Shown in pieces: positions 39,344 through 58,421 of a stretch of 64,000 nucleotides of DNA. The stretch covers positions 3,348,001 to 3,412,000 of the forward strand of contig NC_013922.1 in NCBI RefSeq assembly GCF_000025625.1, in the 5' to 3' direction. The notes beneath the pieces were generated by a model. The model was not told the DNA's origin and ran no database searches. It worked only from the letters and a program-made list of their open reading frames with translations. Source of the DNA: Natrialba magadii ATCC 43099 (GTDB lineage Archaea > Halobacteriota > Halobacteria > Halobacteriales > Natrialbaceae). Position numbers and translations under genes: made by a program. Positions within the stretch are counted from its first letter, which is position 1; the number at the start of each line of letters is the position of its first letter.

Positions 39344-41152
39344 ATGAGTCGGACGTCCCGCCACGACGAGACAGCATCGAACGCACAGGAATCATCCACG
39401 AAAAACGACGGCGAGCCGGGCTCGAAGCCAGAACCGGCGAGTTCGCTCGACACCCTCGTCATCGGCATCGACGCAGGCTGCATGCCGGTCTTCGAACGCC
39501 TCTTCGAGGAAGACCGCATCCCAACGATCGAACGCCTGTGTACGGACGGTCTGACCGCGCCACTCGAGTCCCAGATTCCGCCGTGGACGCCGAGCGCCTG
39601 GCCGTCGGTCTACACTGGCCAGAACCCCGGCAAGCACGGTGCAATCGGCTTCGTCGGCTACGACGGCTACGACTGGCACGTCACCAGCAACGACGACGTC
39701 GACGCACACCCGCTGTGGACGCTGCTCGACCAGCAGGGGTACTCGAGTGTCGTCGTCAACGCGCCAGTCACACACCCGCCGGACGAGTTCGACGGGGCGG
39801 TGATCCCTGGCTTCCTCGGGCCAGAAGATCCGCTGTGTCACCCTGCGGGTGTGCTCGACGAGGTTCGCGACGAAATCGGCGAGTACCGGGTGTACCCAAA
39901 CTACACGCGTGACGACGACTCAGTGCCCGAATCCGAGAAGATTACCGAGTATCAGCGACTGGTTCAGATGCGCGGTGACGCCTTTCGCTATCTTACCGAC
40001 GAGTACGAGCCTGATTTTGGCTTTCTGCAGTTCCAGAAGACGGATACGGTATTCCACGAGTTTGCGGGCGATGAAGACAAGGTCAACGCCGTCTACGAGG
40101 CGACCGACGAGACGATCGCACAGGTACTCGACGATTGTGATCCGGACCGCGTCTTCCTCGTGAGCGACCACGGCATGGGACCCTACGAGGGCTACGAGTT
40201 CCGGCTCAACGAGTTCCTGCGCGACGAGGGATTCCTGGAGACGACCACGGGCGGCAAGGGGATGCCCTCCTGGACACCGATGCGGCGGCGACTCCGCGAA
40301 GGAGAAGAGTACGACACCTGGGAGCCGGGAACAGTCGCCCGCGCGGCCTCTGTCGCCGCACAGTTCGGCATTACCGCCAGCCGGATTCGGACGGTACTCG
40401 AGCGCGTCGGTCTCGCGGAGCTGGCGATCAAGTACGCACCGAGTGGCGTCTCCCGGACGGCGAACGAACAGGTGGACTTCGGTGAGTCGAAGGCCTACGT
40501 TCGCGCCCGGACGGAACTCGGTGTCCGAATCAATCTCGAGGGGCGTGAACCGATGGGCGTCGTTCCGCCCGCGGAGTACGAGGACCTCCGCGAGGTCCTC
40601 ATGGAGACACTGCGCGGCGTCGAGACACCTGACGGTGAGCCGTTCTTCGAGACGGTCGCGCCCCGCGAGGAGTTCTTCCACGGCGAGAACGTCGAGGAGA
40701 CGGTCGATATCGTGGCGATTCCGGCCGACTTCGAGCATGCACTTTCAGAGCAGTTCCGCGAGGATGCGGACAGCTACTTCGGACCGGTCGAGCCGTGGAA
40801 TCACAAGCTCGATGGTATCTTCGTCGCCGCTGGTGAGGGGATCGACGGGACGGCCGCGGTTGATCGCACGCACCTCTTTGACGTTGCACCGACGGTCCTG
40901 GCCGCGATGGGGGTCCCCTACAGTGAGCGGATGGACGGCGAGATCGTGCCTGTTGTCGAACCGACCGAGGCGATCGAGTATCCTGCCTACGGTGGCATCG
41001 GTACCGTGGACCGTGAGCGAGACGGGTCGGATGGGGCGGGAGATCGGGAACGGGACGACGAAAGCGAAGGCGAACGTCAAAGCGAACGCGAACGGCCCGA
41101 AGCCGACGATGACGTCACGGAGCGACTCGCGGATCTGGGATATATGAACTGA
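39344..41152 (+). CDS. Alkaline-phosphatase-fold phosphodiesterase/nucleotide pyrophosphatase
   Basis: A 602-residue enzyme of the alkaline phosphatase superfamily (type I phosphodiesterase/nucleotide pyrophosphatase). The first metal site is DTLVIGIDAGCMPVFERL near residues 36-53, the nucleophile Thr/Ser region is PPWTPSAWPSVYTGQNPGKHG near 79-99, and the second metal site is RVFLVSDHGMGPYEGYEF near 268-285. A third site lies near HLFDVAPTVLAAMGV at 507. The N-terminal 30 residues and a charged stretch near 560-590 are disordered. No signal peptide is seen, so it acts in the cytoplasm. The position at the start of a glycan island suggests sugar-phosphate or lipid-phosphate substrates. Confidence 0.85.
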   Translation: MSRTSRHDETASNAQESSTKNDGEPGSKPEPASSLDTLVIGIDAGCMPVFERLFEEDRIPTIERLCTDGLTAPLESQIPPWTPSAWPSVYTGQNPGKHGAIGFVGYDGYDWHVTSNDDVDAHPLWTLLDQQGYSSVVVNAPVTHPPDEFDGAVIPGFLGPEDPLCHPAGVLDEVRDEIGEYRVYPNYTRDDDSVPESEKITEYQRLVQMRGDAFRYLTDEYEPDFGFLQFQKTDTVFHEFAGDEDKVNAVYEATDETIAQVLDDCDPDRVFLVSDHGMGPYEGYEFRLNEFLRDEGFLETTTGGKGMPSWTPMRRRLREGEEYDTWEPGTVARAASVAAQFGITASRIRTVLERVGLAELAIKYAPSGVSRTANEQVDFGESKAYVRARTELGVRINLEGREPMGVVPPAEYEDLREVLMETLRGVETPDGEPFFETVAPREEFFHGENVEETVDIVAIPADFEHALSEQFREDADSYFGPVEPWNHKLDGIFVAAGEGIDGTAAVDRTHLFDVAPTVLAAMGVPYSERMDGEIVPVVEPTEAIEYPAYGGIGTVDRERDGSDGAGDRERDDESEGERQSERERPEADDDVTERLADLGYMN

Positions 41153-44102: not shown

Positions 44103-45251
44103 CTACTGGGTCGCTGTCGCTCGAATCAGCTCCCGGAACGTCACGACCTCGAGGTCGCGCTCTTCGATCCACTCGAGTGTCTCGCGAATTCCATCTGCAG
44201 TCACCTCTTCTTTGAACGTGTGGGCACCGATGATGCCGAGGCCCTCGTCGGCGGCGAGCTGGTCGAGTTCAGACTGCACCTGTTCGGGCGTCGTGAACTC
44301 GATGAAGTAGTCGCGGTTCGTATCGAACGGGTCGAACGCGTCCGGATCGTTGTGCATCGAGCCCGGATTGACGTTCGCGATGCCGTCGTAGTGCTCGCGG
44401 GCGTGTTCGATCGCCCAGTCGTCGACGATGTCGTAGGGGGCGAGCAGCGTGTCGATCTCGAAGCCGTGGTCCTCGAGTTCCCGTTTGGAGCGCCCGAGAA
44501 AGTCATCCATCACGTCGTCCGGATATCGCTCGACGGTCTCACCTGCGGCGAACGACTCTCCGATGGGTTCGTCGAACTCGAGATAGCCGCCGATATCGTC
44601 AGTATCTGAGTCGTCGACGGTCCGACGAACACTCGTCTCACCGTCGGTGATTTCGACGTCGTGTCCGTGGTGGAAGCCGTGATTTCGCTGTTCGGGGTAG
44701 ATGCGGGTATCGCCCGGGTCGACGTCTTCGACGAGATCGAACGCGCCGAGTGCGGTGTGATCCGTCGTATGAGACATGATCTCCCAGCCGGCGTCCTCGA
44801 GTTCGGCGATCTGTTCGACGGTCATCCAGTCGGTTCCGTTGAAGTCCTCGCGGCCGATCCACTCGGTGACGATGCCCGCGCTCGCGGGCGCGTCGAACTC
44901 CTGGTGGACCGGAAACGCCTGCTCGTAGTCTTCGATCGGGCCGTCGTCGTAGACGAAAGCGACAGCGCCGCCGTCGATTTCGGGGATGTCGTCAGCTGTC
45001 TCCTCGTCCCCGTTTCCGTCTCCATCGCTATCGCCGCTATCGCCATCACTGCCATCAGTCTCGCCACCATCACCGGACGCGTCGCCGCTACCGTCGTCAG
45101 TGCCATCCGTACTCGAGTTGTTCGATGCTGGACTCTCATCGTCCGACGAACGGAGGTCGGTACAGCCGGCGGTCAGGCCGGTGAGGCCGAGGCCGGCGGT
45201 GCCCATGAGTCGGCGACGACTCAGGCGGCGTTCTGTCGGTTCGGTACCCAT
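44103..45251 (-). CDS. Secreted polysaccharide deacetylase lipoprotein A
   Basis: A 382-residue NodB-family protein. Residues 9-30 (LSRRRLMGTAGLGLTGLTAGC) form a Tat lipoprotein signal. An acidic Ser/Asp/Gly linker follows to about residue 90. The deacetylase domain has the first catalytic motif YDDGP near 100 (typical T-F-D-D-G) and the zinc-binding SHTTDHT near 159, with the third motif NPGSMH later. It should remove acetyl groups from an extracellular N-acetylated polysaccharide. It converges on the beta-helix gene with 20 bp between them. A TATA-like ACTTATAAG on the minus strand lies about 30-40 nt upstream of the start. Confidence 0.85.
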   Translation of the reverse strand: MGTEPTERRLSRRRLMGTAGLGLTGLTAGCTDLRSSDDESPASNNSSTDGTDDGSGDASGDGGETDGSDGDSGDSDGDGNGDEETADDIPEIDGGAVAFVYDDGPIEDYEQAFPVHQEFDAPASAGIVTEWIGREDFNGTDWMTVEQIAELEDAGWEIMSHTTDHTALGAFDLVEDVDPGDTRIYPEQRNHGFHHGHDVEITDGETSVRRTVDDSDTDDIGGYLEFDEPIGESFAAGETVERYPDDVMDDFLGRSKRELEDHGFEIDTLLAPYDIVDDWAIEHAREHYDGIANVNPGSMHNDPDAFDPFDTNRDYFIEFTTPEQVQSELDQLAADEGLGIIGAHTFKEEVTADGIRETLEWIEERDLEVVTFRELIRATATQ

Positions 45252-45516: not shown

Positions 45517-45609
45517 GTGGCTACCGATCGCGAACGATCGACGAACGGGAGCGCTGGACAGCGGGTCGATCGGCGATGGCGGTCGGTGACTTCGGAGGTT
45601 GATCTATGA
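45517..45609 (+). CDS. Candidate 30-residue leader peptide coupled to the flippase
   Basis: A GTG-started open frame of 30 codons begins just after the predicted transcript start and ends in TGA overlapping the flippase ATG as ATGA. The peptide is basic (Arg-rich) with no known motif. Its position argues for translational coupling; coding is not proven by any other sign. Confidence 0.3.
   Translation: MATDRERSTNGSAGQRVDRRWRSVTSEVDL
45594..45599 (+). promoter_or_regulatory. Shine-Dalgarno site of the flippase gene
   Basis: GGAGGT six bases before the ATG at 45606. Strong Shine-Dalgarno sites are rare in the leaderless genes of this window, and it supports the choice of start. Confidence 0.65.
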
Positions 45610-47246
45610 ATAGAAGCATTGCAAGCGGTATCTTCTCGGTCGTCAGTACGAAGGTGATCGTTCTCATTGTTACTGCCCTCTCGACGCCGCTGCTGTACCG
45701 GTTCCTCGGTGCGTCGGGGTTCGGCGATTACTCCTTCCTGATGTCGGTGTTCGCCATCTACATGATCTTCGTGAGTTCTGGCATCACGGATGGCGTCCGG
45801 AAGTTCCTCGCAGAGGATCGAAGCGCAGCCAACTGGAGCGAGCACGTCGTCGGCTACTACTTCCGGCTCGCGGTGATCCTCGCCGTCGTGGGTGCAGCCT
45901 TGTTGCTCGCAAGCGTCCAGTTCGGACTCGTCAGCCTCGCCTTCGGCGACGAGTTGGCGATTTACTTCTACGCACTCGCGCTGCTCGTTATCACCGCGCA
46001 GTTTCGCGACTACGCGCGCAAGACGCTCATGGGGTTCGGACTTGAGCGCTACTCCGAGCCGCTGAAAGTGCTTGACAAGGTCGGCTTCGTCGTCGTCGCG
46101 ATTCCGCTCGTCTACGCTGGCGCTGGCGTCCTCGGCGCGCTCGCGGGCCACCTCTTTGCGAGCCTGCTGGTTGCGACGGTCGGGCTGCTCATCGTCCACC
46201 GTCGGATCTCGCTCTCCTGCGTGTTCAGCACGCCCAGCTCTGACTTCCCACGAAAGAAGATGCTCACGTTCAACTCGATGAGCATCGCGCTCGTTTTCCT
46301 GTTGATGTCGCTCTATCACATCGACATCGTGATGCTCCAGCAGTTCCGCGAGAGCGCCGACGTCGGAAACTACCGGGCTGCACTCACACTCGCGGAGTTT
46401 CTCTGGTTCGTCCCGCTCGCCCTCCAGACGGTGTACGTCCACTCGACATCCGAACTCTGGTCGCAGAACCGTCACCGGAAGATCACCGAACTCGCCTCGC
46501 GAACGACCCGATACACGTTGCTGTTGACGGTGATCATGGCAGTCGGTCTCGCCGCACTCGCAGACGTCGCCGTCCCGATCTACTTCGGCGAGGAGGCAGT
46601 GCCCGCGATCGAGCCGCTCTTGCTCTTGCTCCCCGGCGCGCTTGGCTTCGCGCTCGCACGGCCGGTGCTCGCTATCTCGCAGGGCAACGGCACGCTCAGA
46701 TACCCCGTCGCCGCAACCGGTGTCGCGGCGCTCATCAACGTGATCCTCAACGCGCTGTTGATCCCGCGCTATGGAATGCACGGTGCGGCGGTCGCGACGA
46801 GCGTCGGCTACGGCTCGATGTTCGTCTTCCACTGCGTGAGCGCGCGTCAGATCGGCTTCGATCCGCTCGCGGACGCCCGAGTCGGGCGCGGCCTTCTCGC
46901 CGCGTTGCTCTCCGGTGGGCCGATCTTCGCGCTCTCGGCGGCGATCACACACCCGATTCTCGCGCTCGTACTCGTCCCGCCGGTCGGCTTCCTGCTGTTC
47001 GTCGGTTTCGCCGTCCTCGTGGGCGCACTCGATCCGACGGAACCGTTCGAAATCCTCGGCCTCTTCCCCGATCCGATCGGCTCGAAGGCGGACGCGATTC
47101 ACGACCGACTCGAACGCTCGGCCGCAAGTCATGGCGAAACCTCACGGGGCTGGCTCCAGCGACTGCTGTTCGTCGTCGGCCTCTCGCTACTCGCCTCGGG
47201 ACTCGCGCTTAGCTTCCTCGGCCCAGCAGTCGACGCACTGCTCTGA
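45606..47246 (+). CDS. Wzx-type oligosaccharide flippase
   Basis: A 546-residue polytopic protein with about 14 transmembrane helices, of the polysaccharide biosynthesis/MATE-like (MOP) superfamily that flips lipid-linked sugars. The N-terminal half starts STKVIVLIVTALSTPLLYRFLGASGFGDYSFLMSVFAIYM, typical of the family; later GNYRAALTLAEFLWFVPLALQTVYVHS and ATGVAALINVILNALLIPRYGMHGAAVATSVGY match the conserved second half. It probably moves lipid-linked oligosaccharide out for the surface glycan (AglR-like role inferred). Confidence 0.88.
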   Translation: MNRSIASGIFSVVSTKVIVLIVTALSTPLLYRFLGASGFGDYSFLMSVFAIYMIFVSSGITDGVRKFLAEDRSAANWSEHVVGYYFRLAVILAVVGAALLLASVQFGLVSLAFGDELAIYFYALALLVITAQFRDYARKTLMGFGLERYSEPLKVLDKVGFVVVAIPLVYAGAGVLGALAGHLFASLLVATVGLLIVHRRISLSCVFSTPSSDFPRKKMLTFNSMSIALVFLLMSLYHIDIVMLQQFRESADVGNYRAALTLAEFLWFVPLALQTVYVHSTSELWSQNRHRKITELASRTTRYTLLLTVIMAVGLAALADVAVPIYFGEEAVPAIEPLLLLLPGALGFALARPVLAISQGNGTLRYPVAATGVAALINVILNALLIPRYGMHGAAVATSVGYGSMFVFHCVSARQIGFDPLADARVGRGLLAALLSGGPIFALSAAITHPILALVLVPPVGFLLFVGFAVLVGALDPTEPFEILGLFPDPIGSKADAIHDRLERSAASHGETSRGWLQRLLFVVGLSLLASGLALSFLGPAVDALL

Positions 47247-47644: not shown

Positions 47645-48742
47645 TCAGTACACCTGCGCCTCAAGCTGCTCGCTCTGGGCCATGTCGAACACCATCGCGA
47701 ACAGCAAGAGCGACACGCCAAGCGCGAAGACCAGCACGCTCGCGACACCCTCCAGGAACGGCACCGATAGCTGCGAGAGCGCAATGAATAACGTCCAGAG
47801 TCCAGCGAAGACGCCGACGCCAGCGGTCGCCGCGCCAAAGAGGTAGAAGAACGCAAGCGGATGGAAGTCGAGCGCGAGATACTTCGTCTTGAGCCGCCAG
47901 AAGAAGTTTCGCAGGAGCATCGTCGACACCTTCGGAATGTACTCCGAGTAGGTGATACTCGACTCCTCGTCGCCGTACACCGCCGGCATCGCCACGTCCG
48001 CGACAGCCATGTCCTCGACGTTTAACTTCACCAGCAGGTCGTTACAGTAGCCGTAGTATTCATAGAGCTCCTCGAGTGCAACCGACTCGAGTGCCGCCTG
48101 CGAGATGGCGGTGTAGCCGTTCTGGGGGTCCATCGTCTTCCAGTAGCCCGAGGCGACCTTGGTCAGGAACGTTAGGATGGTGTTGCCGATGAACCGAAAT
48201 CGCGGCATTGCCTCGCGGTACTCCGCCGAGAGAAGGCGATTCCCCTTGGTGTAGTCGGCCGTGCCCTCGACGATCGGGTCGAGGAGCCGCGGCATCTGTG
48301 AGAGGTCCATCTGGCCGTCCGCGTCGACGGTGACGGTCGCGTCGACGCCGTCCTCGCGGGCGGCGAGGTAGCCGGTTTTGATCGCGCCGCCGGCACCGAG
48401 GTTCTCGCGGTGTTGAATCGGCACGACACGACCGATCGGGTCGTGGACCTGTGCGCGACTCGCCAGCGCCGAGGTGCCGCCGTCGGTGGCGATGTCGGCG
48501 TAGCCCTCCTCGCCGCTGTCGTAGCGCTGTTCGGAGGCTCGTTCGTGCCCAGTCGAGTTCGTTCGTGCGTCTCGGTCCGTCGCTGCGGCCTCGCGAATCT
48601 CCTCCCAGGTGTCGTCGGTCGACTGATCGTCGATGATGTACATTCGGTCGACGTACGCCGGCATCTCGGCGATGACGTCGCCGACGAATCCTTCCTCGTT
48701 GTACGCCGGGATCACGACGCCGACGCTACAATCTCGGTACAT
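47645..48742 (-). CDS. GT2 glycosyltransferase with C-terminal membrane helices
   Basis: A 365-residue family-2 transferase. The GT-A nucleotide motif VVIPAYNEEGFVGDVI is at residues 9-24, and the metal site TVDADGQMDLSQM is near 137-149, with the late KVASGYWKTMDPQNGYTAIS near 195. An Asp/Gly-rich insert lies at residues 55-100. Two transmembrane segments end the protein (FHPLAFFYLFGAATAGVGVFAGLWTLFIAL, VLVFALGVSLLLFAMVFDM), a layout shared with dolichol-phosphate sugar synthases. It likely charges the lipid carrier or adds a sugar on the cytoplasmic side. Confidence 0.88.
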   Translation of the reverse strand: MYRDCSVGVVIPAYNEEGFVGDVIAEMPAYVDRMYIIDDQSTDDTWEEIREAAATDRDARTNSTGHERASEQRYDSGEEGYADIATDGGTSALASRAQVHDPIGRVVPIQHRENLGAGGAIKTGYLAAREDGVDATVTVDADGQMDLSQMPRLLDPIVEGTADYTKGNRLLSAEYREAMPRFRFIGNTILTFLTKVASGYWKTMDPQNGYTAISQAALESVALEELYEYYGYCNDLLVKLNVEDMAVADVAMPAVYGDEESSITYSEYIPKVSTMLLRNFFWRLKTKYLALDFHPLAFFYLFGAATAGVGVFAGLWTLFIALSQLSVPFLEGVASVLVFALGVSLLLFAMVFDMAQSEQLEAQVY

Positions 48743-48810: not shown

Positions 48811-48866
48811 TCAACTGCGCACCAGCGTCACGGCTCGTTCAACTGCGCACCAGCGTCACGGCTCGT
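48811..48866. repeat. 28-bp perfect tandem duplication over a stop codon
   Basis: Two identical 28-bp copies, 48811-48838 and 48839-48866. The second copy contains the stop codon of the deacetylase-like gene B (48856-48858), and the first gives a non-coding repeat of that end. Perfect identity implies a recent event. Confidence 0.9.
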
Positions 48867-50148
48867 ACTCGTCGAGATCCGCCGTCGTCACGACGTCGAC
48901 ATCGGCGTCGTCGATGTACGACAGCAGGTTCTCGAACGCGAGTTCGCTCATGCTGTTTGGGCCCATCTCCTCGAAGTGAAGCACGGCGAGTTCGCCGTGG
49001 GCTGCGGCGTGGTCGACGTAGGTTCTGGTGTCCTCACCGGCATTTCCGGAGAAGAACCCGAGGTTGTACGGGTCAGAGATCGGCAGCCCGTTCGTCCCGC
49101 CGCCGTAGCGGAACGCGCGGTCGTGATACTCTTCGACGAGGTTTCGGGTCGTCGGACCCATGACGTTTCGCGGGGTGAGGAACGTCGCCGTCCCGTCCTC
49201 GAAGCCGCGGTTCTCGAGCCAGGCGTTGGTCTGTCGGATCAACCCTTCCTGCTCAGTGTCGGAGTAGTCGGTGATGTTCTGCGCCCCCGTTCGCGGGCGA
49301 GCGGCCACGTCCCAGCCGGCCTCGACGAGGTCGTCGAGCTGGGTCAGCGAAAGGCGACCGTCGTTGCCGACCGTCTCGGGGATCACCGCTTCGACGCCCG
49401 CAAAGTCGTACTCGGAGAGCGCCTCGAGTGCGATCTCGTGGTGGCTCTCGAGTGTGCCGTCGAACAGCAGCATGACCTTCCCCCTATCTGGCCGAGGTGC
49501 GACACGGAGGTCGTCGATTGCACAGTCGATCGGGCCGTCGGTCGCGCCGCGCCGGCGCGCCGTAAGTCGGATCTCCCGGACGTTCGAGAGATCCGGCTCG
49601 CCGTCGATTCCCGCGGTTCCGAAATCGACGCGCGTCCAGCGATCCGTCGGCCCGATCAGGGTTCGACGCAGCGTGGCCGCACTACTCGAGTTCGGTGCGA
49701 ACAGTTCGAGGGTGAGCACGAGTTGCTCCTGTTCGGCAAAGCGGACTGCCAGTGAGAGTGTGGAATCGGACAGATCCTCGCCGCCGGAGCGCGTCGTGTA
49801 GATGCCCGCGTATTCGGTACCCTCCGCTGCCGTGAGGGACGCAGACTGTGGCCCGCTGTAGGGGTCGTCCTCGTCGGCGTCGAGGTCGCCGGCGTCGAGC
49901 ATCGTCACCCAGCCGTCGAGGTCGTCGAAGGAGACGAGTGTCTCGCCCGGTAGCTCGTCGGCGCTGTGGTAGTGGAACTCGCGTGTGTCGTCTCCGTTGC
50001 GCTCGGAATCGTTGTCGTCGTGGTCGCCGGTACCCTCACCGTCACCGCCGTCACCCCAGCCGTCGATGGTGGAGAGACAGCCAGCGACGCCGAGCGTGCC
50101 GACGGCTGCAGTCGCCGCCACGAACGATCGTCGGTTGCTGTCCGTCAT
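48856..50148 (-). CDS. Secreted deacetylase-like lipoprotein B, catalytic residues lost
   Basis: A 430-residue Tat lipoprotein (NRRSFVAATAAVGTLGVAGC at residues 5-24). After an acidic linker comes a carbohydrate-binding-like beta domain (about 60-220, with ATLRRTLIGPTDRWTRVDFG) and a NodB-like domain from about 230. Aligned by eye with the protein at 54319, the first catalytic motif D-D-G has become F-D-G-T and the zinc-binding H-x3-H region reads AARPRTGAQN. The two proteins share the same domain order. I infer a binding or structural pseudoenzyme, but the fold itself is intact. Confidence 0.78.
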   Translation of the reverse strand: MTDSNRRSFVAATAAVGTLGVAGCLSTIDGWGDGGDGEGTGDHDDNDSERNGDDTREFHYHSADELPGETLVSFDDLDGWVTMLDAGDLDADEDDPYSGPQSASLTAAEGTEYAGIYTTRSGGEDLSDSTLSLAVRFAEQEQLVLTLELFAPNSSSAATLRRTLIGPTDRWTRVDFGTAGIDGEPDLSNVREIRLTARRRGATDGPIDCAIDDLRVAPRPDRGKVMLLFDGTLESHHEIALEALSEYDFAGVEAVIPETVGNDGRLSLTQLDDLVEAGWDVAARPRTGAQNITDYSDTEQEGLIRQTNAWLENRGFEDGTATFLTPRNVMGPTTRNLVEEYHDRAFRYGGGTNGLPISDPYNLGFFSGNAGEDTRTYVDHAAAHGELAVLHFEEMGPNSMSELAFENLLSYIDDADVDVVTTADLDEYEP

Positions 50149-50275
50149 TGGCTCGAGACAGAACCGTTCGGGTCTTTCTTATACACCTCTTAGTAGCCCC
50201 AGCACCGACGCCAGTTTGGCTCGGACCAACAGCCATACCGTCGCGAATCGGGGCGGGTACGAGCGTTAGTAGCTC

Positions 50276-50285
50276 GATAATAATG
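50276..50285 (+). promoter_or_regulatory. TATA-like box for the GT2 gene
   Basis: GATAATAATG centred about 30 nt before the ATG at 50311, consistent with a nearly leaderless transcript and with this start rather than the GTG at 50290. Confidence 0.5.
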
Positions 50286-50310
50286 GCCCGTGGCCGCCGA
50301 AACGCAAGCA

Positions 50311-51399
50311 ATGTCACAGCCGCGCGTCAGCGTCATTATTCCGACGTACAACAGAGCCGAGAGCCTGCCGCGAGCCATCGACAGCGCCCTCGAACAGACT
50401 CTTCCCGACTCCGAACTCGAGGTCGTCGTCGTCGACGACGGCTCCACCGACGACACCGCCTCGGTGCTCGCAGGCTACGACGACCCCCGCGTCCGCCCCG
50501 TCGTCCACGCGACTAACCAGGGCGCGAACGTCGCCCGCAACACCGGCATCGAACACGCCCGCGGCGAATACGTCGCCTTCCTCGACTCCGACGACGAGTG
50601 GCACCCCGACAAACTCGCGCACCAACTCGAGACACTCGCCGAGCGCGGCGACGACTGGGTCGGCGTCTACTGTGATACTGCACTCGAGGTACTCGAGACG
50701 AGCGATCGGGCGCGCGGGCTCGTGGCGTCACTACTTGCCCGCTCGGATGCGGAGCCGGTGCGCGAGGGCGACGACGAGCTGATTGGCGAGATTCTTGCGG
50801 ATAACGTCCAGCCTGGCGCGGGTTCGACGCTGGTTGTCGAGACCGCGGTCGCACGGGCGGTCGACGGCTTCGACGAGGAGCTAGATCGGTTCCAGGATCC
50901 GGAGTTCTGTCTGCGTGTGCTTGGCGAGGGTAAACTCGCCTACGTAGACGAGGAACTCGTCGTCCGCGAAGAGACGGGCCACCCGCCGGCAGACGTGATC
51001 CGCGAGGCGGACGAGCAGTACCTCTCGCGATACGAGGACGAGGTCGAGCGCTTCGAGGCCGCGGGGTACGACATCCGCGCGAGTCACGAACTCGTGCTCG
51101 CAAAGCGCTACCTCGCAGAGGGGCGCTTCCTGCGTGGCGCGTGGCACCTTCGCGGGGCGGCGACGTCGCCGCGGCGCTGTCCCGGGCTCTGCTGGGCTGC
51201 GGGAACGGGTGTGCGACGCCGCCCGAAGACCGTTCTCGCGGGCACCGCCGTTGTCGCGCTGGTCGCTGTTGCGATGGTCGCGGCGCTCGCGCGCATCTCG
51301 GTGTCGGACCAGATCGGTCCCGATATCGACGAGCTCTCGCCAGCGGACGCGCCAGTTACGATCGACCCCGAGGACGAACACGAGGACACGTCGGCGTAA
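50311..51399 (+). CDS. GT2 glycosyltransferase
   Basis: A 362-residue transferase with the canonical GT-A core: RVSVIIPTYNRAESLPRAIDSAL at residues 5-27, VVVVDDGSTDDTASVL near 38-53, NQGANVARNTGIEHARGEYVAFLDSDDEWHPDKL near 70-103. A single hydrophobic segment near 310-330 (TVLAGTAVVALVAVAMVAAL) anchors it, and the last 30 residues are acidic. It transfers a sugar from a nucleotide donor on the cytoplasmic face; donor and acceptor are unknown. It is followed by the ATP-grasp gene on the same strand. Confidence 0.9.
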   Translation: MSQPRVSVIIPTYNRAESLPRAIDSALEQTLPDSELEVVVVDDGSTDDTASVLAGYDDPRVRPVVHATNQGANVARNTGIEHARGEYVAFLDSDDEWHPDKLAHQLETLAERGDDWVGVYCDTALEVLETSDRARGLVASLLARSDAEPVREGDDELIGEILADNVQPGAGSTLVVETAVARAVDGFDEELDRFQDPEFCLRVLGEGKLAYVDEELVVREETGHPPADVIREADEQYLSRYEDEVERFEAAGYDIRASHELVLAKRYLAEGRFLRGAWHLRGAATSPRRCPGLCWAAGTGVRRRPKTVLAGTAVVALVAVAMVAALARISVSDQIGPDIDELSPADAPVTIDPEDEHEDTSA

Positions 51400-51484
51400 G
51401 TACCAGACTGTGCAACCGAATTCTGGGCAGTGAAACGGTCTTGCTGATTCGGTAACTAATACGGTCGGCCTGACAGCACAGGCC

Positions 51485-52657
51485 ATGAACGTCCGCACGC
51501 TGTACCACACAGCCAGAGGAATACAGGGACTCGCCGGAACCGAGTACGACAGCGATGTCAGCCCGTCGCTTCGTCGCCGCCTGTGGCTCTGGCGACGCGG
51601 GTTCCTGAGCCGGTCGGATGCAATCTACGACATAGACGACCATCGCGTCCAGGACTACATCACCGACTACCAGCGCTACGTTCGGACGAAGCGGATCAAC
51701 GGTACCTGGTCTGTCGCGCTGTCAAACAAACTCCTCTTTCACCGAGTGATGCAGCCGTTCGACGACGAGCGCATGACCGTCTACGGGATGGTAAACGACG
51801 GCTCGTTCCACGCCGTCGACACTGACAGCGCTCGTCTCAGTCCCGACGGCGGTGTCCAGTCGACTAGTTCGGTAGACACCGCGCAGACGGACACACCACA
51901 CACCACCAACGCCGCCCAGCGCGTCGTCGAGCAACTCGAGTGCGACGACGACGGGAAACTGGTCCTCAAGTGGGTTCGCGGGGGCGGCGGGAACAACGTT
52001 TACCTCTGCTCGCGAACGGACGATGGCTACCGGGTCAACGGCGAGTACTACGCGGACGCCGAGTTCCGCTCGCTGGTCTCGAACCTGTCTGAATACCTCG
52101 TCTGCGAGCACGTCGAACAGGGCTCGTTCCCCGCTGACCTGTATCCAAAGACGCCGAACACGCTTCGGCTCATCACGATGTATGACGAGGAGACCCACGA
52201 GCCGTTCATCGCCGCGGGCATCCACCGGATCGGAACGACCGACTCGGAGCCGCTTGACAACTTCACGCAGGGTGGGCTCTCCGCCGAAATCGACCTCGAA
52301 ACCGGGGAGCTGGGTCCCGGTGCACGGCCGCCAAACGCCGGTTCCGAATCTGATTCCGACTCCGTCTCCAGACAAGACGCCGTCTCCTGGCACACGACAC
52401 ACCCCGACACCGGCGCGCAGATAAAGGGTGAACGCATCCCCAACTGGGAGGCGATTCGCTCGCGGGTACTCGAGATGGCTACCTCCGCGTCGTTCCTGCC
52501 GTACATCGGCTGGGACGTGATCGTGACGGACGACGACGGCTCGTTCTCGGTGATCGAGGCGAACAGCTATCCGGGACTCAAGTCGATTCAGGTGCATGGA
52601 CCGCTGCTGGCGGACGACAGGGTGCGGCGGTTCTACGAGCACCACGGCGTCTGTTAG
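51485..52657 (+). CDS. Sugar-transfer-associated ATP-grasp protein
   Basis: A 390-residue protein resembling the ATP-grasp group linked to sugar transfer. ATP-site residues are seen in LVLKWVRGGGGNNVYLCSR near 157-175 and YLVCEHVEQGSFPADLYPKTPNTLRLITMYD near 201-231; the metal-binding end is VIEANSYPGLKSIQVHGPLL near 355-374. A low-complexity insert lies at residues 285-305. Such enzymes are thought to ligate amino acids or other acids to sugars. It forms a pair with the GT2 gene 85 bp upstream. Confidence 0.8.
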   Translation: MNVRTLYHTARGIQGLAGTEYDSDVSPSLRRRLWLWRRGFLSRSDAIYDIDDHRVQDYITDYQRYVRTKRINGTWSVALSNKLLFHRVMQPFDDERMTVYGMVNDGSFHAVDTDSARLSPDGGVQSTSSVDTAQTDTPHTTNAAQRVVEQLECDDDGKLVLKWVRGGGGNNVYLCSRTDDGYRVNGEYYADAEFRSLVSNLSEYLVCEHVEQGSFPADLYPKTPNTLRLITMYDEETHEPFIAAGIHRIGTTDSEPLDNFTQGGLSAEIDLETGELGPGARPPNAGSESDSDSVSRQDAVSWHTTHPDTGAQIKGERIPNWEAIRSRVLEMATSASFLPYIGWDVIVTDDDGSFSVIEANSYPGLKSIQVHGPLLADDRVRRFYEHHGVC

Positions 52658-52885
52658 GAGCGAGACAGTTGCTCCGCTATCAGTCGAGTCAACCGTTTGA
52701 ATAGGATATCTTTGCGGCACGAAAAGTGAGTGGACCAGTTAGAGCCACGACCATTGTCGTCTTGCAACAGCACGGACCGCTTCCGGCCGGTGATTTCGCC
52801 GCACCGTTCTCGAGTACAAAACCGCCGCTGTAACGGTCTTACGCGCGCTATAGTAAACAAATCCGGGTAGAGAGTGGGAACTGGA

Positions 52886-54106
52886 ATGCAGCGGGATTCA
52901 CTCTCACGACGATCAGTACTGTCTCTTGCTGGCCTCTCGCTGGCGAGTGCAGGTGTTGCGACTGGTGCACAGACGAGCTATCATTCTCAATCCGCCCCAG
53001 GGGCGACAGACGACGAGCACGTGACACGCGAGTCGTTCCAGATTATGGAGGGGACGGAGAAGGAAACGACAGTCTACGTAACCGACGCTGAAGCCGACGG
53101 ACCGACAGTGTTCGTCATCGGCGGCGTTCACGGGAACGAGACGGCCGGCTACATCGCCGCCGAGGAGATTGCCGAGTGGACGATCGACGCCGGGACACTC
53201 GTCACGTTGCCACGAGCGGACGTCGTCGCCATCGACCGGGGGACACGAGTCGACGACGACGGCATCGACCTCAATCGGCAGTTCCCCGAGGGAAGCGAGC
53301 CCCAGACCGAGCTCGCAGAGGCGATCTGGGATCTCGTCGTCAACCTCGACCCGGCCGTCATCGTCGACCTCCACGAGTCACGCGGGATCTACGCGGGCAA
53401 CCCCGTCGACGGCGTCGGACAGGCGATCTTCCACGCCAACCGTGACGAAGACCGAACGGCCGCGGACAGCGCAATCGAGTACGTCAACGACAACTACATC
53501 GACGTCTCCGAACGCGCCTTCCAGACGGGCTACTTCTCCGGTCCGGACTCGGAACCAACAGGCCTACTCGTCCACAAGGCCGCACGAGAACTCGGTTCCG
53601 AAGCCTTCCTCGTCGAGACGCTCTCGACCGAGAACGAACTCGAGAAGCGAGTCACTTGGCACTCTGCCATTGTCGAGCGACTGGTCGAAGACGAACTGTT
53701 CCCCAACGAGGAGCCGAACAACGGCCACGAGCCGGAAGAGCCGATCGAAGAAGAGCCCGACGAGCCCGACGAGCCGCCCGCGGACGAAGATGATGATGAG
53801 TCAGGGGATGATGTTCCGGACGATCACACCGACCCGGTCGCCGAAATCCGGTCCGATCCGAGCAGCGCGACCGAACGAACACTCGAGCCGGAGCAGACGA
53901 TCACCCTCGATGCGACCTGTTCGGAGGCACCGGACGGCGAGCTCGTGAGCTACGAGTGGAGCATCAAGAACGACGGGACGTTCAACGAGTCCGGGAAGAC
54001 AGTCGACGTAACTGTCAGCGCGAGCGGCGACCACCGCGTGTTGCTGCGGGTGACTGACGATGCTGGTGCGAGCGAGACGACAGAAGTGACGCTGACAGCA
54101 GCCTAA
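52886..54106 (+). CDS. Secreted succinylglutamate-desuccinylase/aspartoacylase-like enzyme with PKD-like domain
   Basis: A 406-residue exported protein. SRRSVLSLAGLSLASAGVATGAQ at residues 7-29 is a Tat signal with no lipobox. The core from about 45 to 265 belongs to the AstE/M14-like zinc group: VIGGVHGNETAG near 73-84 supplies His and Glu, and VIVDLHESRG near 155 the second His. A Glu/Asp/Pro-rich linker (270-310) leads to a PKD/Ig-like domain (about 315-406, ITLDATCSEAPDGELVSYEWSIKNDGT). It likely removes acyl or peptide groups from a surface polymer. Confidence 0.82.
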   Translation: MQRDSLSRRSVLSLAGLSLASAGVATGAQTSYHSQSAPGATDDEHVTRESFQIMEGTEKETTVYVTDAEADGPTVFVIGGVHGNETAGYIAAEEIAEWTIDAGTLVTLPRADVVAIDRGTRVDDDGIDLNRQFPEGSEPQTELAEAIWDLVVNLDPAVIVDLHESRGIYAGNPVDGVGQAIFHANRDEDRTAADSAIEYVNDNYIDVSERAFQTGYFSGPDSEPTGLLVHKAARELGSEAFLVETLSTENELEKRVTWHSAIVERLVEDELFPNEEPNNGHEPEEPIEEEPDEPDEPPADEDDDESGDDVPDDHTDPVAEIRSDPSSATERTLEPEQTITLDATCSEAPDGELVSYEWSIKNDGTFNESGKTVDVTVSASGDHRVLLRVTDDAGASETTEVTLTAA

Positions 54107-54318
54107 CGCGATTGGTCCAGTTCGGCAACTAATCCGGCCCTATCGCTTTTTTCAGGATCGCTTAGGATCACATCCAAGATCGCGCGTGGGAGAGCCACCG
54201 CTATCTCACGATCACGGCACTAGCCGCCGACTCAACACCCAATACTCAGCATCCAACACTCGGACTCAACACCCAACACCCACTCCAAGAAACGAAACGC
54301 GTACGGTCAGAAACGACG

Positions 54319-55653
54319 TTAGAATGGGTCTGTTCGAAGCTCCCACAGGTCGTCGAAGTCGATAACCTCGACGTCGGCCTGATCGATGTGCTCGAGTAGC
54401 TCCTCGTAGTCGTCCTCGTTCATCGTATTATCCTGGTCGAAGGCGTGGAAGTTCAGGATGGTACACTGATTGTGTGCCTCGGCGAGGTCGACACAGCGCT
54501 TCGAGATGTCGAGGTCGTGGCCGATGGTGCGGGGCAGTGCCAGTGGATCGAAGCCGTAGACGTTGGTCAGGTTGACATCGCCGGACTGGTTGAAGCCGCC
54601 ACAGTAGTGGTAGTCCGTGAAGTACTCGAGACTCGTCTTGTCGTAGCTGTTGTGCGGGTAGACGATGTAGTTCGCGCCCTCGAACCCGTTCTCGATGAAC
54701 CAGTGTTTGTCGCCGCGGACGCGCGTCTCGATTTCGTCTTCGTCCTCGTACTCGTGGATCGGGTTGTGCGTCCCGTGGACGACGATCTGGTCGCCTTCCT
54801 CCTGACGCTCCTGGAGTTCCGAGACCGTCATGATCCCGTCGCGGGCTTCCTCGGTCCACTGTGGCACCGGTGCCTGAATCGTCGTAAACCCGAACTCGTC
54901 GTGCATCGGCGAGGCCGTCTCGTAGTAGTCGCTGAAGCCGTCGTCCCAGACCAGCATCACGTATCCCTGCTCGGGCCGGTCGTGGGTTCGGATGTCGTCA
55001 ATCCAGACCTCCGCCTCGTCCATCGAGTGCAACACCTGGAACTCGAGTCGGTCGATCTCGTCCAACGCCGGTTCGATCTCGCTCTCCTCGAAGACGCCCG
55101 GACTCGAGCGGAACCAGCCAACGTCAGGCTCACGATAGGTGATTTCGCGCAGCGAGTAGTAGCGATCGCTACCAAAGTTGTCGACGACGCGCAGGTTGAC
55201 CGTGATGTTCTGCGGCGTCGTCGTCCGAATCGCGAACGAGAAGTCCTTCCCGGTGAGGTCCTCGTCCGGAACGTCGATCTCCGCGACGATTGTTTCGTCC
55301 TCCTCACCGGTCAGGCGCAGACTCTGTGACCCGTCGAAGACGACGTCCTCGTCGACCTCGCCCTCGCCCTGTGTGACCTCCCAGGCGTCACTGTCCTCGA
55401 AGTCGTACAGCGAGTCACCGGGCTGACCGTACTGCTCGCGGCTGTTGTACGCGGTTTCGAGTTCCGGCACGCCGTCCGCCAGCGCGGACACCGTCGTCTC
55501 GTCAGCACCGGTCGACTCGTCCCCTGGCGTCTCACCGTCGCCATCGTCGCCGCGCAGGTCGTCCAGGCGGTCGGTACAGCCCGCGAGTCCAGCGGCCGCA
55601 GCAACACTCGACCCCGCGAGCAGCCGTCGTCGTGTCATTCGGTTGTCTGCCAT
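54319..55653 (-). CDS. Secreted polysaccharide deacetylase lipoprotein C
   Basis: A 444-residue Tat lipoprotein (MTRRRLLAGSSVAAAAGLAGC near residues 6-26). A beta-rich domain with FSFAIRTTTPQNITVNLRVVDNFGSDRYYS covers about 65-225. The NodB domain follows: VMLVWDDGFSDYYETASPM near 232 holds the Asp pair, and VVHGTHNPIH near 292 the zinc His residues. A late motif is TILNFHAFDQDNTMNEDDY near 400. It is the active-looking counterpart of protein B and faces the AstE-like gene tail to tail. Confidence 0.85.
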   Translation of the reverse strand: MADNRMTRRRLLAGSSVAAAAGLAGCTDRLDDLRGDDGDGETPGDESTGADETTVSALADGVPELETAYNSREQYGQPGDSLYDFEDSDAWEVTQGEGEVDEDVVFDGSQSLRLTGEEDETIVAEIDVPDEDLTGKDFSFAIRTTTPQNITVNLRVVDNFGSDRYYSLREITYREPDVGWFRSSPGVFEESEIEPALDEIDRLEFQVLHSMDEAEVWIDDIRTHDRPEQGYVMLVWDDGFSDYYETASPMHDEFGFTTIQAPVPQWTEEARDGIMTVSELQERQEEGDQIVVHGTHNPIHEYEDEDEIETRVRGDKHWFIENGFEGANYIVYPHNSYDKTSLEYFTDYHYCGGFNQSGDVNLTNVYGFDPLALPRTIGHDLDISKRCVDLAEAHNQCTILNFHAFDQDNTMNEDDYEELLEHIDQADVEVIDFDDLWELRTDPF

Positions 55654-57643: not shown

Positions 57644-57752
57644 TATAGCACTGCAATCGGGTACTTTCTGTGCGGGAGACTGCGGTCAATCTTTCCGGAA
57701 ACAGCCGCTAACGACCCTCTATATCGTTTATTGTATTTGAATCGTGAGAATA

Positions 57753-57760
57753 CTTATATA
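57753..57760 (+). promoter_or_regulatory. TATA box of the DUF7344-like gene
   Basis: CTTATATA centred 27 nt before the ATG at 57783, the ideal leaderless spacing. It excludes the GTG at 57744 as the start. Confidence 0.6.
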
Positions 57761-57782
57761 CCACGGGGAATTAGGCTGGAAT

Positions 57783-58421
57783 ATGCGTCTGACGCCGTCT
57801 TGGATTCGCTCTTCATCGGCCGATACCACAGAAGAGCACTCAGTAGATGGCGACGCCTCACTCGATGTCCCAATCTACTACACCTCAGACGGGGACGACT
57901 CGGTTTCTGGCCGCGATGGGGCTGTACACACCGAAAACGATACGCAATCCGCGGCCGCGTTCGTACCCGAGTCGGACGCGACACTGCTTGCAGTGCTCGA
58001 TGATCTGTCGACTCCCGTGACTGTCGATGAACTGGTCGATCAATTAATTGGACGAGCAGGTCGGCCACACTCACCCTCGGAAAGGGAGTCACTGGCATCG
58101 CCATCGACAGCCTCCCCAGAGTCGACGGTTTCCGTCGAAACGTGGGCAACGATTCACGAACGCCTCCACGAGGACCGACTTCCAAAACTCGATGCGGACG
58201 GTGCACTCGAGTTCGATCCGGCACGTGGGACGATCGATCATACACAGTCCGAGACAGGAGACCAGACGATGTTCTCCCCGGCAGTTCTCGGCACAGTGTC
58301 GATTGGATTGCTCTTCGTACTCGCGATTCTGGTGACGGCGTCGATGTACACGGCAGTAACAGTGACAGTGGCAGCAACGACGTTTGCAGTTTGGCTTCTT
58401 CCGGCCTACGGCGTCGTATGA
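57783..58421 (+). CDS. DUF7344-like winged-helix protein with membrane helices
   Basis: A 212-residue protein. The central part ATLLAVLDDLSTPVTVDELVDQLIGRAG with ETWATIHERLHEDRLPKLDADGALEFDPARGTI at about 72-180 has the winged-helix layout common in haloarchaeal regulators of the DUF7344 type. Two hydrophobic helices end the protein (about 165-210, GTVSIGLLFVLAILVTASM). It likely senses at the membrane and binds DNA. It converges with the similar gene at 58474. Confidence 0.72.
   Translation: MRLTPSWIRSSSADTTEEHSVDGDASLDVPIYYTSDGDDSVSGRDGAVHTENDTQSAAAFVPESDATLLAVLDDLSTPVTVDELVDQLIGRAGRPHSPSERESLASPSTASPESTVSVETWATIHERLHEDRLPKLDADGALEFDPARGTIDHTQSETGDQTMFSPAVLGTVSIGLLFVLAILVTASMYTAVTVTVAATTFAVWLLPAYGVV

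What the first reader, a model, noticed from the sequence alone, without database searches (positions are those of the whole stretch)
48856..55653. Paired secreted deacetylases: one with intact motifs and one pseudoenzyme
The lipoproteins at 48856 and 54319 have the same order (Tat lipobox, beta domain, NodB-like domain). The latter keeps W-D-D-G and H-G-T-H-x3-H; the former has F-D-G-T and no His pair. With the active-looking deacetylase at 44103, the island has three surface NodB-family proteins. A catalytically dead paralogue kept in the cluster suggests a glycan-binding or scaffold role, or regulation of its active sister.
Basis: partly seen in the sequence, partly recalled or inferred. 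Interest (0 to 1): 0.55.

Follow-up and report, generated by a model that had tools for sequence, protein, structure and literature searches.

The report
Dead deacetylase lipoprotein, virus-turret kin
A salt-loving archaeon carries on its surface a sugar-binding-type protein whose enzyme half lost its metal site long ago but is still strictly conserved, and the same two-part protein is what one archaeal virus uses as the spikes on its shell.

Summary
Protein B (48856-50148) and protein C (54319-55653) are Tat lipoproteins with a carbohydrate-binding-like beta domain and a NodB/CE4-like domain. C keeps the metal ligands; B does not. B's loss is ancient: in 61 orthologous sequences from Natrialbaceae the second Asp is never Asp and the His pair is replaced by an invariant Arg-Pro-x-Thr-Gly. 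The domain stays under purifying selection, and its most conserved positions lie in the former active-site loops. So B is best read as a metal-less pseudoenzyme with a kept glycan-binding pocket (inferred), coded in a conserved flippase/glycosyltransferase island. 'Dead sister of C' is wrong: C is a distant clade, B occurs without C, and B's positional homologues in other families keep the Asp pair and one His. The metal site has changed at least eight times in this haloarchaeal family. The unexpected result is that B and C match, end to end, the Zn-bearing turret head protein of Haloferax tailed virus 1, which its discoverers thought specific to that virus. Another haloarchaeal virus contig and a provirus also carry relatives. 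Pseudoenzymes of this fold are known; the host/virus link was not found in print in the searches made.

The parts
48856..50148 (-). Protein B: Tat lipoprotein, carbohydrate-binding-like domain + metal-less NodB-like domain (pseudoenzyme). By gene order probably Nmag_3274 of Natrialba magadii ATCC 43099 (inferred)
   Evidence: fold match
50077..50148 (-). B residues 1-24: twin-Arg signal and lipobox Cys24
   Evidence: sequence; G23 and C24 nearly invariant in alignment A1
49495..49956 (-). B residues 65-218: beta-sandwich, carbohydrate-binding-module-like
   Evidence: model; VIA-align Z 10-13 to CBMs and agarase/mannanase binding domains
48868..49482 (-). B residues 223-427: NodB-like domain without metal ligands
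49453..49464 (-). B F229-D230-G231-T232: relic of motif 1; metal-binding Asp is Gly
   Evidence: 0 of 61 sequences have Asp at 231
49285..49302 (-). B A283-R284-P285-R286-T287-G288: replaces the His pair of motif 2
   Evidence: R284, P285, T287, G288 invariant in 61 of 61
49165..49176 (-). B T325-P326-R327-N328 at the motif 3 position
   Evidence: P326 and N328 invariant
48970..48981 (-). B L390-H391-F392-E393 at the motif 5 position
54319..55653 (-). Protein C: same architecture with intact metal site (probably Nmag_3278, by gene order)
54940..54945 (-). C D237-D238 (motif 1)
   Evidence: 51 of 51 sequences (numbered 232-233 there)
54754..54777 (-). C H293-G-T-H296-x3-H300 (motif 2)
   Evidence: H293 and H296 51 of 51, H300 42 of 51 (numbered 288, 291, 295 there)
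44103..45251 (-). Protein A: smaller NodB lipoprotein with intact DD and SHTTDH (probably Nmag_3271)
45606..47246 (+). Wzx/MATE-type polysaccharide flippase
   Evidence: PF01943 3.1e-13; syntenic in 33 of 37 loci
47645..48742 (-). Glycosyltransferase family 2
   Evidence: PF00535
50290..51399 (+). Glycosyltransferase family 2, divergent from B (141-bp gap)
   Evidence: PF00535 8.9e-38; near B in 34 of 37 loci
51485..52657 (+). Sugar-transfer associated ATP-grasp protein
   Evidence: PF14397 1.8e-28
52874..54106 (+). Secreted AstE/AspA-type hydrolase with PKD domain
   Evidence: PF24827, PF18911
55799..57643 (+). Asparagine-synthase-like protein, core of the island
   Evidence: PF00733 4.2e-6; 33 of 37 loci

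Best explanation
B is a surface-anchored, metal-less pseudoenzyme that binds sugar. Tat exports the folded protein, a lipid on Cys24 anchors it, the jelly-roll domain (65-218) docks on the cell's own extracellular or S-layer glycan, and the former catalytic cleft of the NodB domain keeps a conserved, Arg-rich pocket (R265, R284, R286, R347 with D230, N328, N353, D359) that holds a glycan without hydrolysing it. An anionic (uronic or sulfated) sugar is likeliest. Working beside the flippase and glycosyltransferases of the same island, it would retain or organise the exported polymer while C and, where present, A deacetylate it. Shown: architecture, loss of ligands, fixation, constraint, synteny, fold. 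Inferred: lipidation, glycan binding, ligand chemistry, role in retention.
For: Ligand loss in 61 of 61 orthologous sequences. NodB-domain dN/dS 0.04-0.06 in three near pairs and 0.19-0.21 in two farther ones, like C's 0.04-0.06 and 0.17. Invariant residues are enriched in the former active-site loops, 11 of 38 against 20 of 167, p 0.012; at 95% conservation 17 of 38 against 34 of 167, p 0.0024. Fold: whole-length match to the HFTV1 turret head, Z 23.1, CBMs Z 10-13, CE4 domains including the BA3943 pseudoenzyme Z 10-11. Synteny with flippase in 33, glycosyltransferase in 34 and Asn-synthase-like gene in 33 of 37 loci. For the HFTV1 turret head, glycan binding by the same N-terminal domain is proposed by its authors (PMC12494034, passages).
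Against: No binding, metal or activity data. D230, the base in CE4 enzymes, is kept in 57 of 61, which is odd for a pure binder. The loop windows for the enrichment test were chosen after seeing the motifs. Three plasmid-like copies in G073 lie outside any glycan island, so B does not need the island. B's model is of moderate confidence (mean pLDDT 59.9), so the pocket is read from conservation and alignment, not from measured geometry.
Confidence: 0.62

Rival explanations
1. B is not dead but a metal-independent enzyme: the cleft was rebuilt around D230, R284, E253 or E393 for another reaction, as PuuE allantoinase did on a NodB fold.
For: D230 kept in 57 of 61; a new invariant polar set H236, E253, R265, W279, R284, T287, Q300, N328, R347, N353, D359 sits in the domain. 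PuuE (3CL6) is a metal-independent NodB-fold enzyme (PMC10967932, passages).
Against: 4 of 61 have Asn at 230 and E393 varies (49 Glu, 11 Asp, 1 Thr), which is unlike a strict catalytic set. Many independent ligand losses in the wider family suggest loss is easily tolerated.
Confidence: 0.2
2. B is an allosteric partner or regulator of the active sister C (or A).
For: 57 of 60 genomes with B also have C, 56 of those 57 within 10 kb (genomes are related, so this overstates independence).
Against: C without B in 20 of 77 genomes, B without C in 3 of 60; solo plasmid-like copies of B in G073; C is not B's close paralogue.
Confidence: 0.1
3. Catalysis lost for good and only the carbohydrate-binding beta domain works; the NodB domain is a rigid spacer.
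For: Beta domain is as conserved as the NodB domain (mean column conservation 0.75 against 0.76).
Against: Conserved positions concentrate in the old active-site loops, not in the rest of the NodB domain.
Confidence: 0.08

Closest known systems
Turret head protein gp31 of Haloferax tailed virus 1 (PDB 8QPG/8QPQ)
   Same: End-to-end sequence match (profile E 3.6e-30 for the B family, 3.7e-22 for the C family) and same two-domain fold (Z 23.1 and 33.4)
   Different: Viral, no Tat/lipobox signal, trimeric on the capsid; keeps DD and HGYNH, with Zn reported in the structure; B has lost the site
CE4/NodB polysaccharide deacetylases (PgdA 2C1G, PdaC 6H8L, PgaB)
   Same: NodB fold of the C-terminal half
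   Different: B lacks D2, H1 and H2; fails the Pfam gathering score
CE4 pseudoenzymes BA3943 (7BKF), Ba0150 (4M1B), EcCDA (2VYO)
   Same: NodB fold with altered metal or catalytic residues (PMC10967932 passages)
   Different: Bacterial or microsporidian, other domain make-up; no Arg-Pro-x-Thr-Gly replacement shown here
PuuE allantoinase (3CL6)
   Same: NodB fold without metal
   Different: Lacks both Asp of motif 1, purine enzyme (PMC10967932 passages; cytosolic is recalled); B keeps the first Asp and is secreted
N. magadii polysaccharide deacetylases listed in the 2012 genome paper (PMC3403918)
   Same: The six listed include Nmag_3271 and 3278, which by gene order are A and C (inferred)
   Different: B (probably Nmag_3274) is not among the six

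Membership tests
CE4 / NodB deacetylase (active) | Motif 1 Asp-Asp (base and metal ligand) | tested here: not met
   B: second Asp 0 of 61; C: 51 of 51
CE4 / NodB deacetylase (active) | Motif 2 His pair binding the metal | tested here: not met
   B: R284 and T287/G288 in 61 of 61; C: H293 and H296 51 of 51
CE4 / NodB deacetylase (active) | Pfam PF01522 gathering score | tested here: not met
   B 12.4 bits against 23.1; C 29.3, A 36.9
CE4 / NodB deacetylase (active) | Deacetylase activity, bound metal | not testable with these tools
   needs bench work
NodB fold (structural family) | Whole-domain fold match | tested here: met
   B Z 10.5-11.3 to CE4 chains over 154-159 residues; C Z 12-13.5
HFTV1 turret-head-like two-domain family | Galactose-binding-like domain followed by NodB domain, aligned end to end | tested here: met
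HFTV1 turret-head-like two-domain family | Zn ligands Asp-His-His | tested here: not met
   B lacks all three, C has them
CE4 pseudoenzyme (as a kind) | NodB fold with ligands lost and family retained under constraint | tested here: met

The most novel reading that the evidence does not exclude
Haloarchaeal cells and their tailed viruses share one two-domain glycan-binding module: viruses took the active lipoprotein as a head spike to bind and trim the host coat, while hosts repeatedly disarmed their own copies, which then sit on the same glycan and shield it from viral spikes (or act as decoys). B would be such a shield.
Probability: 0.1. Interest if true: 0.85.

Novelty: new variant of a known kind. 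Interest (0 to 1): 0.52.

Why it matters
It shows a whole archaeal surface family in which the same metal site was changed at least eight times while the protein was kept, which makes the switch from enzyme to binder testable by comparing natural stages (Asp-His-His, Asp-His, none). It also points to a source for the puzzling capsid turret of HFTV1, whose authors found no related haloarchaeal virus protein and thought it evolved specifically for HFTV1. Haloarchaeal genomes hold many lipoproteins of the same build, and at least one further viral contig and one provirus carry it.

Tried and rejected
B as a sequencing error or decaying pseudogene: rejected, 61 intact orthologous sequences and low dN/dS. 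B as part of a provirus: rejected, it sits in a conserved chromosomal glycan island. C as B's nearest paralogue: rejected by the tree. My first label of 57744-58421 as PqqD-like was wrong; it is weakly DUF7344-like. Profiles A1 and A2 found no relative in viral contigs, and the G246 provirus protein found none there either. Genome contigs gave only three close Natrialba loci. Metal-site geometry could not be measured: no coordinates reach the Python box. Several paper searches gave nothing on this family.

Full report
Identity of the window. The genome holding the window has 4,443,643 bases in 4 contigs, the exact size and replicon number given for Natrialba magadii ATCC 43099 in its genome paper (PMC3403918, passages only). 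That paper lists six polysaccharide deacetylases, among them Nmag_3271 and Nmag_3278, a polysaccharide biosynthesis protein Nmag_3272 and glycosyltransferases Nmag_3273 and 3275. By gene order these are A (44103), C (54319), the flippase (45606) and the two GTs, which makes B Nmag_3274. This mapping is my inference, and B is not among the six.

Observation. All coordinates and motifs hold. Profile-profile comparison of the B and C families aligns them over their whole length, probability 100, E 1.1e-44, so they are true homologues with the same domain order.

Is the loss real and fixed? B has relatives at E 3.4e-110 or better in 59 of the 125 Natrialbaceae genomes searched, and in a 60th, G103, the gene is split over two frames. 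I aligned 61 sequences from 58 of those genomes (49-97% identity to B). The second Asp is Gly 56, Ala 3, Ser 2. The position of the first His is Arg in 61 of 61. T287 and G288, around the second His position, are invariant. The first Asp is Asp 57, Asn 4. The row left out for low score, L102, also lacks them. In 51 C sequences D237, D238, H293, H296 and H403 are invariant (numbers there are 5 lower). The NodB half of B is as constrained as that of C: dN/dS 0.062, 0.040, 0.053 against three near relatives and 0.193, 0.206 against two farther ones, with C at 0.038, 0.062, 0.055, 0.167, 0.171.

Where the constraint lies. In B's NodB domain (223-427), 11 of 38 positions in the four motif loops are invariant, against 20 of 167 elsewhere (p 0.012). 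At 95% conservation it is 17 of 38 against 34 of 167 (p 0.0024). I set the loop limits by eye after aligning to C, so the p values are a guide. The invariant polar residues are H236, E253, R265, W279, R284, T287, Q300, E312, N328, R347, N353, D359. This looks like a pocket with a new ligand, not a decaying relic.

Evolution. A tree of 79 relatives from Halobacteria places 15 B rows in one clade (100/100), next to six rows from another family of the same order (L171-L176; fork 97/91). Those keep Asp-Asp and one His but lack the second His. Next come L104, L177 and L178, in the same state. C forms its own distant clade of 12 rows that includes one row from another family of the order (100/99). 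Over the 79 rows, 27 keep all of D-D-H-H, 20 keep D-D-H, and the rest fewer. With the motif columns cut out and 72 rows, the second Asp changes state at least 8 times and the first His at least 8 times. Counts do not give direction, but since CE4 enzymes carry the full site and most deep branches here do too, loss is the natural reading. In N. magadii itself, B and three further full-length relatives (L002, L004, L005) lack a complete ligand set; only C and A have it. In G215, a row that keeps DD and one His and a row without the second Asp lie side by side (L193).

Position. In 37 loci around B (34 fetched plus three Natrialba loci), the glycosyltransferase is near B in 34, the flippase in 33, the Asn-synthase-like gene in 33 and C in 30. 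Three of the exceptions are extra plasmid-like copies of B in G073; two of them share a block with a CNNM/CBS protein and a universal stress protein instead. In G099 (L104) the same island has, at B's place, a homologue with Asp-Asp and one His. In the sister family, 4 of 6 rows sit in the same flippase/Asn-synthase island (L211, L213, L215, L216). So the island's B slot held a protein with more of the metal site before the Natrialbaceae B lost it.

B and C together. B in 60 and C in 77 of 125 genomes, both in 57, 56 of these within 10 kb of each other. C occurs without B in 20 genomes and B without C in 3 (G018, G019, G020, which carry A). This fits a shared pathway, not an obligate pair. The genomes are related, so I give no weight to the Fisher p printed there.

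Structure. The best match of both is chain TA of 8QPG, the turret of Haloferax tailed virus 1: B Z 23.1 over 323 residues, C Z 33.4 over 348 (Foldseek E 2.3e-22 for B). The turret protein was one row of the input alignments, so the model search is not fully independent, but the sequence-only profile search had already found it: E 3.6e-30 for the B family, 3.7e-22 for the C family, both over nearly the whole length. The N-terminal half matches carbohydrate-binding modules (CBM11, 28, 30 and those of agarases and mannanase, Z about 10-15). The C-terminal half matches CE4 enzymes and the CE4 pseudoenzymes 7BKF/6HM9 (B) and 4M1B (C).

The virus link. I read passages of the HFTV1 cryo-EM paper (PMC12494034; not its supplements). 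The turret head protein gp31 has a galactose-binding-like domain (57-198) and a deacetylase-like domain (199-413) with Zn. The authors propose that it binds host glycans with the first and modifies them with the second. [quoted passage not shown] Here 99 of 391 haloarchaeal genomes have a relative of gp31 at E 1e-15 or better, many of them B orthologues (up to E 4.9e-27). The best match is on contig G047:C37 (L191), whose protein is 100% identical to one on IMG/VR contig IMGVR_UViG_2554235504_000004, of the same length of 46,506 bases. The G047 contig carries terminase subunits, portal, head morphogenesis and tape measure genes, and there the gp31-like gene follows a poly-gamma-glutamate hydrolase gene. 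The second match (L192) lies in a stretch with a portal gene. In the tree gp31 joins L191 (96/93), but both are long branches. No other virus in the phage collection matched gp31. I found no paper reporting this host family or the link in searches of the open-access library; subscription papers and supplements were not searched.

Mechanism, with what is shown and inferred. Shown: secretion and lipid signals in sequence, two-domain fold, fixed loss of all three metal ligands, constraint centred on the old cleft, synteny with glycan assembly genes. Inferred: B binds the cell's own exported glycan with both domains and holds or arranges it, while C (and A) deacetylate. Main rival: a rebuilt, metal-independent enzyme, for which the kept D230 is the best argument; PuuE allantoinase is a precedent on this fold (PMC10967932, passages).

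Novelty. NodB pseudoenzymes are known, so B is a new variant of a known kind. What is new, as far as these searches go, is the scale of repeated site loss in one archaeal surface family, the fixed Arg-Pro-x-Thr-Gly replacement, and the host relatives of the viral turret head.

Noticed in passing
L191:8034-9527 (G047:C37; protein 100% identical on IMGVR_UViG_2554235504_000004) with L225, L226: A haloarchaeal viral contig or provirus in a Natrialba relative encodes a gp31-like CBM+deacetylase protein next to a poly-gamma-glutamate hydrolase, contrary to the statement in print that HFTV1's turret head has no homologues in other haloarchaeal viruses.
   Followed up: partly
L192:8594-10591 (G246:C1): A provirus stretch (phage portal PF04860, tail and head families) encodes a 665-aa deacetylase related to gp31 and to the C family.
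   Followed up: partly
L002, L004, L005 (G000:C1:3424414, 1926351, 2729860): Three further full-length relatives of B in the same genome also lack a complete metal site; L002 belongs to a separate metal-less clade, several of whose members have C-terminal extensions.
   Followed up: partly
L193 (G215:C3:154800-158500): Tandem pair of relatives, one with Asp-Asp and a His, one with Asp-Gly and no His: a recent split of states.
   Followed up: no
L084, L087, L089 (G073 contigs C2, C4, C3): Three extra B copies on small contigs outside any glycan island; in two of them a CNNM/CBS protein and a universal stress protein lie nearby.
   Followed up: partly
52874-54106: Secreted aspartoacylase/succinylglutamate desuccinylase-type hydrolase fused to a PKD domain, present between B and C in many but not all relatives.
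   Followed up: no
39344-41152: Type I phosphodiesterase-like protein (PF01663) kept at the edge of the island in most Natrialbaceae loci.
   Followed up: no
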